This document shows positions 14,958-25,003 of a stretch of DNA of 28,963 nucleotides, piece by piece. This DNA is from a virus. Under the pieces are notes generated by a model. That model did no database searches. It had not been told where the DNA came from and saw nothing but the letters and a program-made list of their open reading frames with translations. Where the stretch lies: positions 1 through 28,963 of the IMG/VR virus record IMGVR_UViG_3300032088_000047, one strand, 5' to 3'. Made by a program: the position numbers and the translations under genes. The number at the start of each line of letters is the position of its first letter. Position 1 is the stretch's first letter.

Positions 14958-15546
14958 GGTAGAACCACCCAGTAACAATATACTTTTCGTTGTCCCCGTA
15001 GACAGGGTTGCCTCTATGGGCGTGAGTAAACGCTGCGGGCCATAACACCATTGTATTCTCAACAGGGTTTAGTCTCCGCTGTTGGTATAAAAACTCTGTT
15101 TCTCCGTTGGCTTCTGTAGGGAGCGTATTTAAATAAAGCATATAAACTAACCCGCGGCGAGCTTGATCATCGTTACCTTTCTCACCGTGCCAAACATGAT
15201 AGCCGCCCCCACTAGAGGTCTTTTGCATCTTCATGTTGTTGCAATTTATCCTTGTGTCTTTTATAACGGAGAACTGGTTACCGTACTCTTCAAAACACGC
15301 TTGCAAACCGTCGAAAAACAGGTCCACAGTGTTTTTGTCTTGGAACGGTTCAAAGTTTATATTCTTGCCATTAGAAAAAATCTGGTAGTCGTTTTTGACG
15401 TGTTTAGCAGCTCCTTCTCCGTTCTGACGGTCAGTGCCTGCGCCAAGAGCTTGGTTACGGTCAAACTCTGCTATAAGATGTTGGCAAAACTCATCTGGGT
15501 AAACATCCGAAAATACGCCAATGAAGTCTTTATACTCTGTTTTCAT
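14950..15546 (-). CDS. 2OG-Fe(II) oxygenase (third of four)
   Basis: A 198-residue protein with the double-stranded beta-helix pattern of this superfamily. Residues 116-122 (YHVWHGE) contain H120-x-E122, an HxE form of the iron site (H117 is an alternative ligand). The next strands are GLVYMLYLN and GETEFLYQQ. The distal histidine is H175 or H177 in WPAAFTHAHRGNPV, and K188 or a nearby residue could hold 2OG in place of Arg. The start overlaps the preceding gene as ATGA. The HxE site is rarer than HxD, so activity is likely but less certain than in the second enzyme. Confidence 0.85.
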   Translation of the reverse strand: MKTEYKDFIGVFSDVYPDEFCQHLIAEFDRNQALGAGTDRQNGEGAAKHVKNDYQIFSNGKNINFEPFQDKNTVDLFFDGLQACFEEYGNQFSVIKDTRINCNNMKMQKTSSGGGYHVWHGEKGNDDQARRGLVYMLYLNTLPTEANGETEFLYQQRRLNPVENTMVLWPAAFTHAHRGNPVYGDNEKYIVTGWFYHE

Positions 15547-16127
15547 TTAAACGGTGGCCCCGCTACCCATGTTACTAATGTTTGTCTTGTTCCTTTGGTT
15601 ACAGGAGTTACTTGGTGCAATGTCCACGCAGGAAATACTGTTATAAGCCCTCGTTTCTTTTGCATGCTTTTAGGCTCTTTGCTAGTCAGTATTTGCAATT
15701 CTCCACCTTCGTACTCACTGGGGTCGGATAACTGTAAAACCATAGAAAGTTTACGTGATATACCGGAAGCGCCAAAGTCCTGATGCCAAACATAAGTTCC
15801 TTGCCGTGCCTCGTGGTAGTTGGTTAACTGTATAGACTCACCAAACCCGGTAAGCTCGAACCCAAAATGTTCAGCGTTTAAACTTGCCGCAACGTGCGCC
15901 AACCGCTCAAAAACCCACGCGCATTCGGGGTCTTTATTTAGCCAATTAAGCTCGGAGCGTCTTACATTACCGTTAACCTCTCCACTTTTTCCACCCCCTA
16001 TCTTGGCCGATTCTGTGGCTTCTTTAGCTTTCTGTTGTAGCCAATTAAGCTGTCCTTCAGTAAAAGCGTCATCCCACCACGCAAAAGTCTCTACCTTCCT
16101 AGTATGGGGCGTCAGCAAATGCTGCAT
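15543..16127 (-). CDS. 2OG-Fe(II) oxygenase, prolyl-hydroxylase (PKHD) type (second of four)
   Basis: A 194-residue protein with the complete catalytic set: H115-Q-D117 (TYVWHQDFGA), distal H171 (AWTLHQVTPV) and R181 (KGTRQTLVTWV) to bind 2-oxoglutarate. The strands LSMVLQLSD and YEGGELQI are diagnostic of the P4H/PKHD branch, which hydroxylates prolines or related residues. It is the best conserved of the four enzymes. Its start overlaps the stop of the first oxygenase gene (TAATG), so the set is translationally coupled. The substrate is unknown; the collagen-like protein encoded two genes later is the obvious candidate. Confidence 0.92.
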   Translation of the reverse strand: MQHLLTPHTRKVETFAWWDDAFTEGQLNWLQQKAKEATESAKIGGGKSGEVNGNVRRSELNWLNKDPECAWVFERLAHVAASLNAEHFGFELTGFGESIQLTNYHEARQGTYVWHQDFGASGISRKLSMVLQLSDPSEYEGGELQILTSKEPKSMQKKRGLITVFPAWTLHQVTPVTKGTRQTLVTWVAGPPFK

Positions 16128-16705
16128 TAAATAAACCTTTTTCTTTGCGACAAAATAAAGTGGATAAACTTTGTCGGGTCGTTAGATTGGTTCGGCGTTA
16201 TCATGTGCGGAAGCCATGAGTTAAATAGCATCATCGTCCCCGCTTGCACGTTGTTAAAGTGTATCTGAGGCGTAGCCATTGTAACTTGATCGCTAGGCGA
16301 TGCCCACAGGTCGGCCATACGTTTGCCCGGTCTTGGGTCATCAAATATAGGGTACGACCCGCCTTCCGGCACTTCTAAGAAGTAAAAACCCGATATTTGG
16401 CTATTCCCGTGTACGTGCATAATGTTGCTGCCCGTACACGCAAACTCTTGGCCCCACATCCCAGACACGTAAAACTCGTACTCGTCTGTTAAATAACCCT
16501 GATCCTTTAAAATACTAACGCCCTTATCTCGAAAGTAAGACGCTAAGTACCCAAGGTCAGGGTCATTTGCCATGTGCGTAGTCTGTTTAACTACCGATGG
16601 CTCCATTTGTTCGTAGTATTTCTGGGTATGCTTTAGCGTTTCTCCCGCCCACTCTGGCCGCTCTTCACGGTATATAGGCGTTGAGAAATGCGCATACGCT
16701 TCCAT
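16127..16705 (-). CDS. Putative 2OG-Fe(II) oxygenase, TIGR02466-like (first of four)
   Basis: A 192-residue protein. The N-terminus HFSTPIYRE and the central HVHGNSQISGFYFLEVPEGG match what I know of the TIGR02466-type branch, often found in marine phages and bacteria. Candidate iron ligands are H97 or H99 in MHVHGN and the distal H167 in FNSWLPHMITPN; an HxD is absent and the usual Arg position is unclear. The start ATG overlaps the upstream stop (TAATG). This branch is poorly characterised, so the reaction is not known. It opens a block of four overlapping oxygenase genes. Confidence 0.88.
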   Translation of the reverse strand: MEAYAHFSTPIYREERPEWAGETLKHTQKYYEQMEPSVVKQTTHMANDPDLGYLASYFRDKGVSILKDQGYLTDEYEFYVSGMWGQEFACTGSNIMHVHGNSQISGFYFLEVPEGGSYPIFDDPRPGKRMADLWASPSDQVTMATPQIHFNNVQAGTMMLFNSWLPHMITPNQSNDPTKFIHFILSQRKRFI

Positions 16706-20574: not shown

Positions 20575-21279
20575 CTACCTTATGCTGCTTATACGGGGCA
20601 CCAAGCTAAGCGTTGCTTTCTCCCTGTCTTCACCCGCTGCTAGCTCAAACTGACGCTCGTACTCGGCCTGTAGCATAGGAATACGAGGCATCAATTCAGG
20701 GTCTTTTTGAGCTATATAATATGCAAGCCCTGCAACGAGGCAGGGCAAGAAACGGAAGTTAACGTCGGCGGTATTAACCCCTGTCCCAGAATCTTGTATA
20801 CGGCGCATCCGCCAGTACTTAAGTATGTAAAACGGTGCAAGTGCAGTACCTTGGTCTGGTACAGGCCACACAGTAACCGAAGGGTTAGCTTGCCCACGGT
20901 CTACATAAAGCTGTATAGGGCGACCTTGGCTTAGCTTGTTGGGGATGCTTGAGTAGGTAGAGACACTGATACGCGTGATGTTTAGATCAGACTGAGTAGT
21001 TACACTACCATCGCCTGTGCGTACAACGTGCTCTAAAAGGTCTATTGTGTCGGCGGGCAGGTCGTATGTGGCTGTGCCTGTTACGAGGTTTGTTGTACCT
21101 TCCTCGATAGTCCACATGTTTATACCACGGTTCTGCCACTCAATAGTCAACAGATTCATAGACCTACGAGCAGTGCGCAGGTCGTAACCAGAACGCATTT
21201 CTCTACCGGCACGCTCCCACGCTTCTTCCGCAATCTCGGTGAAGTCCATGTTGAATGTAGCTGTGCCAGATGTAGCCAT
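20575..21279 (-). CDS. Head-tail connector/adaptor protein (P22 gp4-like or T7 gp11-like)
   Basis: A 234-residue protein. The start FTEIAEEAWERAGREMRSGY, followed by TARRSMNLLTIEWQNRGIN, is a hallmark of phage tail-tube-A/gp4-type adaptors: helices binding the portal. It is followed by a beta region (TGTATYDLPADTIDLLEHVV) and C-terminal helices (LPCLVAGLAYYIAQKDPELM). Its ATG overlaps the stop of the tiny gene before it. It should form a ring below the portal that helps keep packaged DNA inside. The assignment as adaptor is firm; the exact family is not. Confidence 0.85.
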   Translation of the reverse strand: MATSGTATFNMDFTEIAEEAWERAGREMRSGYDLRTARRSMNLLTIEWQNRGINMWTIEEGTTNLVTGTATYDLPADTIDLLEHVVRTGDGSVTTQSDLNITRISVSTYSSIPNKLSQGRPIQLYVDRGQANPSVTVWPVPDQGTALAPFYILKYWRMRRIQDSGTGVNTADVNFRFLPCLVAGLAYYIAQKDPELMPRIPMLQAEYERQFELAAGEDREKATLSLVPRISSIR

Positions 21280-21461
21280 TATTTACCCCAACTTTCCCGC
21301 GCTTTCTTCTGCGCAGTTTTAGATAAATCTTTGTAATGAAATAACTTTGCGGACTTAGCTGACATCGTTTTGCCTGTCATTACAGTCCCGTCGGGGTGTT
21401 TGTGCGTGCCCCCTCGGTGCGTTTTACCGTCTTTAAAGTAGTGGTTTACGCCCTTAGCCAT
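21279..21461 (-). CDS. Small basic conserved phage protein
   Basis: A 60-residue basic protein rich in Lys, His, Gly and Thr. Its core, KDGKTHRGGTHKHPDGTVMT, is followed by LFHYKDLSKTAQKKARESWG. I recall close relatives in marine phages and no known function. It is the last of a run of tiny basic genes; its ATG overlaps the stop of the previous gene by one base, and its stop touches the adaptor start. A DNA-binding or minor virion role is a guess from the charge. Confidence 0.75.
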   Translation of the reverse strand: MAKGVNHYFKDGKTHRGGTHKHPDGTVMTGKTMSAKSAKLFHYKDLSKTAQKKARESWGK

Positions 21462-21739
21462 TATTTCTTCTTCCTTTTAAGCGATGCTACACGCTTAGGT
21501 TTACCTGCCGGTTGCCCTAGGCGCTTCTTCTGCGCTATACGGGACTTCTTCTCTGCCGCTGTCATCTCACCAGAGGTCTTAGGCGTTTTACTAGAGACCC
21601 GCTTTGTGGGTCTACAGTACGGGGTTCCCCGCTTATCGCCCTTTTTACGTCCACAAGCCTTGCCTGTCTTGACGTCTTTCCAGTCCTCTTTGAACCACCG
21701 CTTTAGGGCTTTGCCCTTCTCGGTTTTACGAACGGCCAC
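21461..21739 (-). CDS. Small highly basic protein, GTG start
   Basis: A 92-residue, very basic protein. Its core is GKALKRWFKEDWKDVKTGKA, then CGRKKG and YCRPTKRVSSKTPKTSGEM, with two cysteines. I recall similar WF-x-EDW-x-DVKTGK sequences in marine phages and in giant viruses, but cannot name a domain with confidence. The C-terminus is Lys/Arg-rich (KPKRVASLKRKKK). The start is GTG at 21739, overlapping the preceding micro-gene by 14 bases. It may bind DNA or the capsid interior. Confidence 0.75.
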   Translation of the reverse strand: MAVRKTEKGKALKRWFKEDWKDVKTGKACGRKKGDKRGTPYCRPTKRVSSKTPKTSGEMTAAEKKSRIAQKKRLGQPAGKPKRVASLKRKKK

Positions 21740-21899
21740 TGGCTTTCTTCTTTCTGCACTTGGCTATAGCACCCGAGGCGTACGCAGAAGGGAAGACTTT
21801 GTACGATGCCTTCACCTTGCGGTAGCAGTCGTCTTTGACCGTGCCGCCTTTCTTAAACGTAACGGGCTTCATTTTGCCCATGCCTCTGCACTTCATCAT
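21726..21899 (-). CDS. Small basic protein (57 aa)
   Basis: A short minus-strand frame that I translated by hand: starts at ATG 21899 (or 21896) and stops with TAA at 21728-21726. Key segments are MKPVTFKKGGTVKDDCYRKV and VFPSAYASGAIAKCRKKK, which I recognise from memory as a recurrent motif in small proteins of marine phages and giant viruses. AAGGG lies 9 bases before the first ATG, the start overlaps the stop of the upstream gene, and the gene overlaps the next start by 14 bases. This packing and the conserved motif support a real gene. Two cysteines and a high Lys/Arg content are notable. Function unknown. Confidence 0.85.
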   Translation of the reverse strand: MMKCRGMGKMKPVTFKKGGTVKDDCYRKVKASYKVFPSAYASGAIAKCRKKKASGRS

Positions 21900-22306
21900 C
21901 GCATTGTGCCCTTAGTTCGACCTCGGATAGCACAGCCGTCACCAACACAGCCACCTTTTTTTAGACCTTGTACTTCTTTGCCGCCCATTTCTACTCTAAA
22001 ACTAGGATCATCTAGCTTACTACCCAGCTCATCTCGGAGCATGTTTCGCATCGCCAATTCTTCTTGCTTAGCTTTTAAACGCCTAAGCGCTGTAGCAGAC
22101 TTAGGAGACGTGCGTTCAAGCGCAGTTTCTGGAGGCGCTTTTTTCATTGGGGTGGCTTTGCCACCAGCTTTGTACTTCATGACTTTGCCGCCCATGTTCA
22201 TCTTGCCTTTGCCGTCAGCTGCGTAGAACGGGACTTTCTTACCGCCCTTCTCTACCATTTCCAGCTTGCCACCCATGTTGTACCGCTTTGTTTTACAACC
22301 TGCCAT
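21896..22306 (-). CDS. Basic Gly-Gly-Lys repeat protein
   Basis: A 136-residue basic protein with repeated MGGK/AGGK units (NMGGKLEMVEKGGKK, NMGGKVMKYKAGGK) in its first 55 residues. A central charged helix (SATALRRLKAKQEELAMRNM) follows, then a tail GCVGDGCAIRGRTKGTMR. The last part shares an RG..TKGTM.R motif with the 60-residue protein at 20028-20210. AGGAG, overlapping the stop of the pqqA-like gene, lies 6 bases upstream of its ATG. Similar proteins occur in marine phages (memory). Function unknown. Confidence 0.75.
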   Translation of the reverse strand: MAGCKTKRYNMGGKLEMVEKGGKKVPFYAADGKGKMNMGGKVMKYKAGGKATPMKKAPPETALERTSPKSATALRRLKAKQEELAMRNMLRDELGSKLDDPSFRVEMGGKEVQGLKKGGCVGDGCAIRGRTKGTMR

Positions 22307-22315
22307 GATGTTCTC

Positions 22316-22387
22316 CTAGCGAGTCTTAAAATACATAGTAATTTCAAAGCCTAACCGTACATTTTCGTATGAAGGTTTAGTCCACAT
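22316..22387 (-). CDS. pqqA: PqqA-like peptide, precursor of coenzyme PQQ (23 aa)
   Basis: A 23-codon gene, ATG at 22387 to TAG at 22316, found by reading the gap between two small genes. It begins MWTKPSYENV and continues RLGFEITMYF, ending KTR. This fits the PqqA family residue by residue: the M-W-x-K-P start, R11, G13, E15, T17, Y19 and the C-terminal R23, at the exact length of the classical 23-residue PqqA (family facts from memory). In PQQ synthesis, PqqE (radical SAM) with the chaperone PqqD links the side chains of this Glu and Tyr, and PqqB/C and proteases finish the cofactor. AGGAG (22398-22394) overlaps the stop of the upstream gene and lies 6 bases before the ATG; the next gene's AGGAG overlaps this gene's stop. 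No other pqq gene is in the window, so host enzymes would have to act on it. Confidence 0.93.
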   Translation of the reverse strand: MWTKPSYENVRLGFEITMYFKTR

Positions 22388-22393
22388 AACAGT

Positions 22394-22398
22394 CTCCT
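22394..22398 (-). promoter_or_regulatory. Ribosome binding site of the pqqA-like gene
   Basis: AGGAG, six bases before the ATG at 22387. Its first two bases are part of the TAG stop of the upstream gene. The strength and exact spacing argue that the 23-codon frame is translated. Confidence 0.88.
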
Positions 22399-22672
22399 AC
22401 CACTTAACCTTATCAGCCCAGTAGGCTGCGCTCATTTTGCCTTTGGCGATATTCTTGCCGTGACGAGCCTTAAACGACTTGCGCTTAGCTTTCATCTTGG
22501 CAGACTCGCCAGCTTTGGGTTTGCCAGCAGTGCTTGCGCCTTTCTCGCCAAAACGAATTATCTTCTCCTTCCCGTTCTCACAAGCCTTCACAATGTGGGA
22601 CTTCTTAGCATGGGACGGAGTTCGTCTTGGCTTATTACAAGCCATTGCTTTCTTATCTACTTGCTTAGCCAT
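22397..22672 (-). CDS. Small basic conserved phage protein
   Basis: A 91-residue, Lys-rich protein. It contains MACNKPRRTPSHAKKSHIVK, then ACENGKEKIIRFGEKGASTAGKPK, and ends in FKARHGKNIAKGKMSAAYWA before DKVKW. I recognise this as a recurrent small protein of marine phages (memory); its function is unknown, although some resemble DNA-associated or zinc-binding proteins. It overlaps the upstream gene by 8 bases. The stop codon forms part of the ribosome site of the pqqA-like gene. Confidence 0.8.
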   Translation of the reverse strand: MAKQVDKKAMACNKPRRTPSHAKKSHIVKACENGKEKIIRFGEKGASTAGKPKAGESAKMKAKRKSFKARHGKNIAKGKMSAAYWADKVKW

Positions 22673-23072
22673 ATTGCTTGTTCACAGTAAATATAAAGGT
22701 ATAGGTATCTCCAGCAGTTGGAGCTACTGTAGTTGCTACTATGTCGCCAGTTTTACCAGCTCCAGCGTTGTTGGGAATTCCGCTAAAGGCAGTGAAGTCG
22801 TACTCCTCTGTCCAGTTTACTGGTAGATCAAAGATAAGAACGTTAGCATTTGCCTTCCATTCTAGTTTGACCCCTACTCCAACACCTACGTACACAAGCT
22901 TTGCCAAAACAGCGCCAGTACAGGCTCTACGGCTTACCGGATCAACCGATAATGTAGAGACATCAACCATTGTGCTAGTTACTACGTCGGTATTTCCTAC
23001 AACCGCAGTAACCTTAATGATCGCCTGCTTGCTGCCATCTTGGATTATTTGAGTCGATACTGTATCAGCCAT
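22665..23072 (-). CDS. Beta-rich virion structural protein
   Basis: A 135-residue protein starting MADTVSTQIIQDGSKQAIIK. The pattern of alternating strands (VKLEWKANANVLIFDLPVNW, then DTYTFIFTVNKQYG) suggests a beta sandwich. No cysteine pairs or catalytic motifs. I recall similar minor structural proteins in phages with this gene order. It follows the 69-residue protein and starts the tightly packed run of small genes. Probably a head or decoration component. Confidence 0.7.
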   Translation of the reverse strand: MADTVSTQIIQDGSKQAIIKVTAVVGNTDVVTSTMVDVSTLSVDPVSRRACTGAVLAKLVYVGVGVGVKLEWKANANVLIFDLPVNWTEEYDFTAFSGIPNNAGAGKTGDIVATTVAPTAGDTYTFIFTVNKQYG

Positions 23073-24094: not shown

Positions 24095-25003
24095 TTAAGC
24101 GCCCGGTGAACCGAAGATACCCAGTGGGTCAGATACGCCGAAGCTGTATCGCTCACGAGCCTTATAACGGCTGTTGCCTGTGTCGAAGTCTGCGTCCATG
24201 CTAGTGCTCATAGGTGAGCGGACGAAGTGCTTCAGGCCGTTGGGGATGTCAGTCATCAAGAACCAAGCATTGGTATCAGTCAGGTAGTTGTTAACTTTAT
24301 AACCACCGGGGATTGAACCGTTGTTGTTCAGTGCGTTGATGTCGTTATCCGCTGTAGCCACACGAAGGTTGGTATCCAACAGGCGAGTAGCAACGAATTG
24401 CAGTGCCGGTGGAATAACAAGCGTCTTAGGCTTGGCTGCAATAAGCAGACCGCGCTCATCAGTCCAACCAGCAATCTGAATAACAGCAGCTTCGAGTGAA
24501 GCCTCGTTAAGGTCAGCAGCAACAGCAGGACGGTTTGAGTTTACACCACCAGATACGAGAGGGTGAGCAGTTGAACAGAGAGTCTGTCCATCACCGTACG
24601 TAGTACCAGCAGCGAATGCGTTGTTTAGGATGCTAGCACCCTTAACTTGCTTAGTGTACGCCATAGCGCGGGCAAGTGCCTTTGTATAACGTGAAGAGAG
24701 TGAATCGTAGAGGTTATCTTCGATTGCTTCTTCAGTGAGCGAGAAGCCCATTGCAACTGTCTCGTGAGTGTAACGAGCAGTCCACGCTTCTTGCGCATTG
24801 TCATACTCGATTGCAGAACCTTCACCTTTAACAGGTGCGGCACTGAAACCAGACAACTTAGTTTCTTCTTCAAAAGAACGATCCGAAGATTCAGTCTCGA
24901 AGATTTCAGCAGCCTCGTCACCATACTTAGCGTATTCGAGGCCAAATAGGGCGTTTAGACCCGGTAGTAGCTCCTTAAGGAGTTGCGCTCTTGAAATAGC
25001 CAT
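24095..25003 (-). CDS. Major capsid protein (HK97 fold, Mu gpT-like)
   Basis: A 302-residue protein beginning MAISRAQLLKELLPGLNALF. It carries blocks that I know from the Mu gpT-like family of major head proteins: FEEETKLSGF, YDNAQEAWTARYTHETVAMG, FSLTEEAIEDNLYDSLSSRYT, STAHPLVSGG, GWTDERGLLIAAKPKTLVIP and NDINALNNNGSIPGGYKVNN. The C-terminus ARERYSFGVSDPLGIFG is equally typical. It forms the shell. No N-terminal delta/protease domain is present, in agreement with a separate scaffold gene upstream. AGGAG lies 8 bases before the ATG. A strong terminator follows, as expected for the most expressed gene. Confidence 0.93.
   Translation of the reverse strand: MAISRAQLLKELLPGLNALFGLEYAKYGDEAAEIFETESSDRSFEEETKLSGFSAAPVKGEGSAIEYDNAQEAWTARYTHETVAMGFSLTEEAIEDNLYDSLSSRYTKALARAMAYTKQVKGASILNNAFAAGTTYGDGQTLCSTAHPLVSGGVNSNRPAVAADLNEASLEAAVIQIAGWTDERGLLIAAKPKTLVIPPALQFVATRLLDTNLRVATADNDINALNNNGSIPGGYKVNNYLTDTNAWFLMTDIPNGLKHFVRSPMSTSMDADFDTGNSRYKARERYSFGVSDPLGIFGSPGA

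What the first reader, a model, noticed from the sequence alone, without database searches (positions are those of the whole stretch)
22316..22387. A phage-encoded PqqA: the precursor peptide of the redox cofactor PQQ, in a late structural operon
Seen directly: a 23-codon gene with perfect ribosome-site spacing reads MWTKPSYENV then RLGFEITMYF then KTR. It matches the classical PqqA length and all residues I know to matter, with Glu15 and Tyr19 in their exact places. Known: these two residues are cross-linked by PqqE/PqqD to make PQQ, and one peptide is used up per molecule. Inference: the phage raises the host's PQQ supply, or titrates PqqD/PqqE, late in infection; PQQ serves alcohol, methanol and sugar dehydrogenases. 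That would be an auxiliary metabolic gene only 72 bases long, which gene callers with size limits miss. I am not aware of a characterised phage PqqA. Expression in the virion operon instead of an early operon is puzzling: a peptide packaged with or bound to the particle is another possibility.
Basis: partly seen in the sequence, partly recalled or inferred. Interest (0 to 1): 0.95.

Follow-up and report, generated by a model that had tools for sequence, protein, structure and literature searches.

The report
Phage-carried PqqA, the PQQ precursor peptide
A marine phage carries an intact 23-residue copy of the peptide that bacteria use up to make the redox cofactor PQQ, and the same tiny gene turns up, under strong selection and usually overlooked, in many unrelated phages, including cultured phages of methanol-eating bacteria.

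Summary
Confirmed. The 23-codon ORF at 22387-22316 (-) scores 41.3 bits on Pfam PqqA (cut-off 21.1) and 44.7 on the NCBIfam equivalog (cut-off 20). It sits between head genes, with TAGGAG stop/ribosome-site overlaps on both sides. It is not unique. DNA-pattern scans found 160 other IMG/VR contigs with an intact 23-codon pqqA, in about 22 gene contexts that include T4-like, T7-like and this SU10-like group. Nine isolated methylotroph phages also have it, annotated as nothing or as something else. In scans that left codons 15-17, 19 and the stop free, 135 of 135 contigs kept Glu15, Thr17, Tyr19 and 23 residues. In 50 pqqA phage records I found no PqqD, true PqqE or PQQ alcohol dehydrogenase. Close relatives of this phage lack the gene and hold other small ORFs in the slot. 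Bacteria with the same motif are Gammaproteobacteria, mostly marine, with pqqA in a pqq operon. Best reading: an auxiliary gene supplying only the consumable substrate of host PQQ synthesis (inferred, untested). Phage pqqA was reported once, in a T4-like Lake Baikal methylotroph virus (2020), so the kind is known. The breadth, this phage group and the overlooked isolate copies appear new.

The parts
22316..22387 (-). pqqA: 23-codon gene for the PQQ precursor peptide MWTKPSYENVRLGFEITMYFKTR (Glu15 and Tyr19 are the pair cross-linked by PqqE)
   Evidence: PF08042 41.3 bits; TIGR02107 44.7 bits
22394..22398 (-). AGGAG ribosome-binding site of pqqA, 6 nt before the ATG, overlapping the TAG stop of the upstream gene
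   Evidence: sequence; a similar purine-rich site precedes most of the 119 viral copies
22313..22317 (-). AGGAG ribosome-binding site of the downstream gene, overlapping the pqqA stop codon
   Evidence: sequence
22397..22672 (-). upstream neighbour, small basic protein, phrog_7595 (function unknown); boundary of the accessory slot
   Evidence: phrog_7595 E = 6.4e-38; kept in relatives with and without pqqA
21896..22306 (-). downstream neighbour, Gly/Lys-rich small protein
   Evidence: no Pfam or PHROG match
24095..25003 (-). major head protein of this phage group (marks the structural region)
   Evidence: phrog_371 E = 1.3e-20
20575..21279 (-). SU10-type adaptor protein (marks the structural region)
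   Evidence: PF24175 48.9 bits, cut-off 27

Best explanation
It is a real PqqA carried as an accessory (auxiliary metabolic) gene. Shown: the peptide is intact, its coding frame and the two residues that become PQQ are under strong purifying selection, and 50 examined phage records with pqqA lack the other PQQ genes tested. Inferred: during infection the phage makes PqqA; host PqqD binds it, host PqqE joins Glu15 to Tyr19, and host protease, PqqB and PqqC finish PQQ, so that periplasmic PQQ alcohol or methanol dehydrogenases stay charged. One peptide is destroyed per cofactor while the enzymes are catalytic and persist, so after host takeover the consumable substrate is the one part worth carrying, much as cyanophages carry the fast-turnover protein D1. 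The host of this phage is inferred to be a marine gammaproteobacterium with its own pqq operon.
For: Profile matches. Of 119 IMG/VR contigs plus the window, 120/120 have an intact 23-codon ORF. With codons 15, 16, 17, 19 and the stop left free, 135/135 contigs (68 distinct DNA sequences) keep E15, T17, Y19 and length 23, while T17 uses all four codons and Y19 both. pN/pS is 0.13 for close pairs, 0.09 in codons 17-23 outside the search pattern, and 0.17 within this phage group. About 22 gene contexts, with T4 gp23, baseplate, UvsX and gp32 genes and a T7-like head gene beside it. Nine methylotroph phage isolates carry it. No PqqD, no PQQ alcohol dehydrogenase, and only weak generic radical-SAM hits (no true PqqE) in 50 pqqA phage records. 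All 19 bacterial genomes with the same motif are labelled Gammaproteobacteria or proteobacteria, and 18 show pqqB or pqqE next to pqqA; some phage peptides differ from a cellular one by a single residue. Precedent: a methylotroph with three orphan pqqA copies outside its operons, and reports that single-gene pqqA overexpression raises PQQ in Gluconobacter (PMC9851590; PMC7936290).
Against: No expression, binding or PQQ measurement exists for any phage copy that I found. Most close relatives of this phage lack the gene (79 of 80 by head protein; 41 of 52 by the nearest structural neighbour, some of these loci being truncated), so it is dispensable for the particle and for many hosts. The host is inferred only from peptide resemblance. 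Expression inside a structural operon would be late, when metabolic help has the least time to act. The presumed PQQ enzymes are the host's and were not identified.
Confidence: 0.82

Rival explanations
1. Decoy: the peptide occupies PqqD/PqqE and lowers PQQ synthesis, for example to shut down host respiration or divert carbon.
For: Phage peptides often inhibit host enzymes (general knowledge); the leader part that would bind PqqD is conserved.
Against: A decoy needs the leader but not the two residues that become PQQ, nor their spacing; these are invariant in 135 of 135 contigs with the codons left free. Some phage peptides nearly equal a cellular PqqA (1 residue apart), so they should be normal substrates.
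Confidence: 0.06
2. A virion-associated or structural peptide that resembles PqqA or has been co-opted from it.
For: In this phage it lies between structural genes with tight stop/ribosome-site overlap.
Against: In Venkman it lies between genes of the replication/recombination region on the opposite strand, in P19250A at the end of an operon, in Melnitz beside tRNA genes; relatives with the same head proteins lack it.
Confidence: 0.04
3. Recently captured host DNA or assembly contamination without function.
For: Peptides resemble bacterial PqqA closely.
Against: Phage hallmark genes flank it in many contexts; every copy is intact; synonymous sites are highly diverged (pS about 0.5) while residues are kept; isolated phages carry it.
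Confidence: 0.02
4. The PQQ made from it serves mainly as an antioxidant or as another redox or signalling molecule during infection, not as a dehydrogenase cofactor.
For: PQQ is redox active (general knowledge); the phage records examined carry no PQQ alcohol dehydrogenase of their own.
Against: The isolates with the gene infect methylotrophs, whose central enzyme depends on PQQ; the Baikal virus with pqqA also has methanol dehydrogenase (PMC7678222).
Confidence: 0.06

Closest known systems
Cellular PqqA (Pfam PF08042 / TIGR02107), e.g. 23-residue copies in Gammaproteobacteria
   Same: Length, Trp2-Lys4-Pro5 start, Arg11, Gly13, Glu15, Thr17 and Tyr19; both curated cut-offs passed; two residues from a cellular copy
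   Different: Lies in a phage structural operon, without pqqB-E beside it or, in the 50 related phage records tested for PqqD and PqqE, anywhere in the record
PqqA of the Lake Baikal methylotroph virus VP_266 (PMC7678222, 2020)
   Same: Phage-carried pqqA proposed as an auxiliary metabolic gene
   Different: That virus is T4-like with its own methanol dehydrogenase; this one is an SU10-like phage, probably of a marine gammaproteobacterium, in a group where the gene comes and goes
Unannotated pqqA in methylotroph phages Venkman, P19250A, MEP301, MEP401/402 and Melnitz
   Same: Intact short PqqA with Glu-x3-Tyr
   Different: Different phage families and gene positions; peptide of the RFGFEVTMY type instead of RLGFEITMYF; the isolate papers read here (MEP301, MEP401/402, Melnitz) do not mention it
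Orphan pqqA copies of methylotrophs (pqqA3-5, PMC9851590)
   Same: pqqA outside the pqq operon as extra substrate dosage
   Different: Chromosomal, not known to be phage-borne
Cyanophage psbA (general knowledge)
   Different: A protein subunit, not a peptide precursor of a cofactor

Membership tests
PqqA family (PF08042 / TIGR02107) | Score above the curated cut-off of the family model | tested here: met
   41.3 vs 21.1 bits; 44.7 vs 20 bits
PqqA family (PF08042 / TIGR02107) | Glu and Tyr at Glu-x3-Tyr spacing, the residues that become PQQ | tested here: met
   E15 and Y19 here; kept in 135 of 135 phage contigs with those codons unconstrained
PqqA family (PF08042 / TIGR02107) | Short leader-plus-core peptide of about 20-30 residues | tested here: met
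   23 residues; all 120 copies 23 residues
PqqA family (PF08042 / TIGR02107) | Located at the head of a pqqBCDE operon (usual, not obligatory: orphan copies exist, PMC9851590) | tested here: not met
   Neighbours are phage structural genes; no PqqD and no true PqqE in 50 related phage records. Not a defining requirement
PqqA family (PF08042 / TIGR02107) | Binding to PqqD and cross-linking by PqqE | not testable with these tools
   Needs biochemistry
Phage auxiliary metabolic gene | Phage-borne homologue of a cellular metabolic gene, intact and under purifying selection | tested here: met
Phage auxiliary metabolic gene | Accessory: present in some, absent from other close relatives | tested here: met
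   present in 11 of 52 loci with the neighbouring structural gene, none degenerate; the slot holds other small ORFs elsewhere
Phage auxiliary metabolic gene | Expressed in infection and alters host metabolism | not testable with these tools
   Needs infection experiments

The most novel reading that the evidence does not exclude
A widespread, almost unseen class of phage micro-gene: phages of PQQ-dependent bacteria across many unrelated families repeatedly carry only the consumable peptide of a cofactor pathway, relying on host enzymes. Some T4-like phages extend this into a periplasmic redox module (pqqA with cytochrome c-like genes and a CopC-like gene).
Probability: 0.6. Interest if true: 0.75.

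Novelty: new member of a known kind. Interest (0 to 1): 0.64.

Why it matters
PQQ powers methanol and alcohol oxidation in abundant marine bacteria. If phages commonly supply its precursor, they steer one-carbon flow in the sea with a gene too short for most gene callers.

Tried and rejected
The 'Acinetobacter phage MD-2021a' hits carry the other pqq genes (pqqB, pqqC, pqqD and a radical-SAM gene) plus ppk, so the contig is probably bacterial DNA deposited as phage and was not counted. Weak PqqE-model hits in two phage records are generic radical-SAM proteins far below the cut-off. Direct nucleotide relatives of the window in GenBank phages: none. tRNAs in the window as host clue: none. Promoter scan around pqqA: none found, so expression is presumed to be operonic. 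Organism names of searched genomes are hidden, so the host genus could not be fixed. Methylophilales phages MEP431-434 are listed in the taxonomy but their genomes were not examined.

Full report
Observation. The ORF at 22387-22316 (-) reads MWTKPSYENVRLGFEITMYFKTR and stops at codon 24. It scores 41.3 bits on Pfam PqqA (cut-off 21.1; ungapped over all 19 model positions) and 44.7 bits on the NCBIfam equivalog TIGR02107 (cut-off 20). PHROGs has no family for it. The ribosome site AGGAG (22398-22394) overlaps the stop of the upstream gene, and the pqqA stop overlaps the AGGAG of the next gene, so the three genes look translationally coupled. Upstream lies the major head protein (phrog_371) and downstream an SU10-type adaptor (PF24175). 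The window is a 28,963-base virus record.

How common. With the window, all 120 carry an intact 23-codon ORF. That pattern fixed part of the N-terminal and core codons, so I repeated the search with codons 15, 16, 17, 19 and everything after 18 left free, in two exhaustive scans. All 135 contigs (68 distinct DNA sequences) keep Glu15, Thr17, Tyr19 and exactly 23 residues; Thr17 uses all four codons and Tyr19 both. Together the scans give 160 viral contigs besides the window. pN/pS is 0.13 for close pairs over codons 2-23, 0.09 over codons 17-23, and 0.17 within this phage group found through its neighbour genes.

Where. Grouping loci by shared neighbours gives 22 contexts. Neighbours include the T4-type major head protein, baseplate hub, UvsX and gp32, and a T7-like major head protein. 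Among isolated phages, Venkman, P19250A, MEP301, MEP401, MEP402 and four Melnitz strains carry it; in the records it is unannotated or covered by a gene on the other strand. The Melnitz and MEP301/401/402 papers do not mention it. Outside the structural setting of this window it lies in replication, recombination, tRNA or intergenic regions, which argues against a role in the particle.

Accessory nature. Of 80 loci with the closest head proteins, one has pqqA. Of 52 with the neighbouring structural gene 22665-23072, 11 have it, all intact, and none shows a decayed copy. In the nearest relatives, which keep the upstream neighbour, the slot between the flanking genes holds other small ORFs. So pqqA is a swappable cargo gene in a common marine phage group.

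Hosts. The one bacterial-genome scan for the window-type motif gave 19 genomes, labelled Gammaproteobacteria (Halieaceae, Pseudohongiella and unnamed groups) or simply proteobacteria; 18 show pqqB or pqqE beside pqqA, and the other locus ends too early to tell. Some phage peptides differ from a cellular one by a single residue (for example [23 protein letters not shown] against [23 protein letters not shown]); the window peptide differs by two from its nearest. In the order of one of these genomes, 49 of 245 genomes have a PqqA match. The phages of methylotrophs carry a distinct RFGFEVTMY type. The inference is a marine gammaproteobacterial host with its own pqq operon; the genus is not fixed.

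Mechanism. In 50 phage records with pqqA, including three complete isolates, no PqqD and no PQQ alcohol dehydrogenase was found, and only weak generic radical-SAM matches. Many are fragments, so absence is secure only for the complete ones. From the literature, PqqE with PqqD cross-links Glu to Tyr in PqqA, and a protease, PqqB and PqqC then make PQQ (PMC10906245). A methylotroph carries five pqqA copies, three outside operons (PMC9851590), and single-gene pqqA overexpression is reported to raise PQQ in Gluconobacter (cited in PMC7936290). The peptide is destroyed for each PQQ while the enzymes are reused, so a phage that shuts off host expression would need to supply only the peptide. That step is inference. 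A decoy would not need Glu15 and Tyr19, which are invariant.

Relation to what is known. The Lake Baikal study reported pqqA in one T4-like methylotroph virus with methanol dehydrogenase (PMC7678222), so the idea of a phage pqqA is not new. What I did not find in the searchable literature is its breadth, its presence in isolates, its use without a dehydrogenase, and its presence in this SU10-like group. I therefore rate it a new member of a known kind, with above-average interest because it can be tested in cultured phage-host pairs.

Noticed in passing
L034 and L051 (T4-like IMG/VR contigs), about 3.3 kb upstream of pqqA to 0.5 kb downstream: Between the gp23 head protein gene and a UvsW-like helicase gene lie proteins with CxxCH motifs (in L034 one is a Pfam cytochrome c), pqqA and a CopC-domain protein (58 bits): an apparent phage periplasmic redox module. 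L022/L047 and L044/L081 have related CxxCH proteins next to pqqA.
   Followed up: partly
window 15543-16705 (-): Two adjacent genes both match 2OG-Fe(II) oxygenase families of phages (phrog_61, phrog_81).
   Followed up: no
window 21279-22672 (-): A run of small Lys/Gly-rich basic proteins (phrog_7595, DUF5872-like and others) around pqqA; the slots between them carry different small ORFs in relatives, as in a cargo hotspot.
   Followed up: partly
L121 (CAKLQF020000010.1): A record named Acinetobacter phage MD-2021a carries bacterial ppk, pqqB, pqqC, pqqD and further metabolic genes; it is probably a bacterial contig mislabelled as phage.
   Followed up: partly
L122 3961-4056 (Melnitz-1): The annotated hypothetical gene Melnitz1EXVC043M_151 appears to be on the wrong strand; the pqqA ORF (MKWTKPVAQEMRFGFEVTMYIMTR) lies on the opposite strand with a strong ribosome site, just before a tRNA-Leu.
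   Followed up: yes
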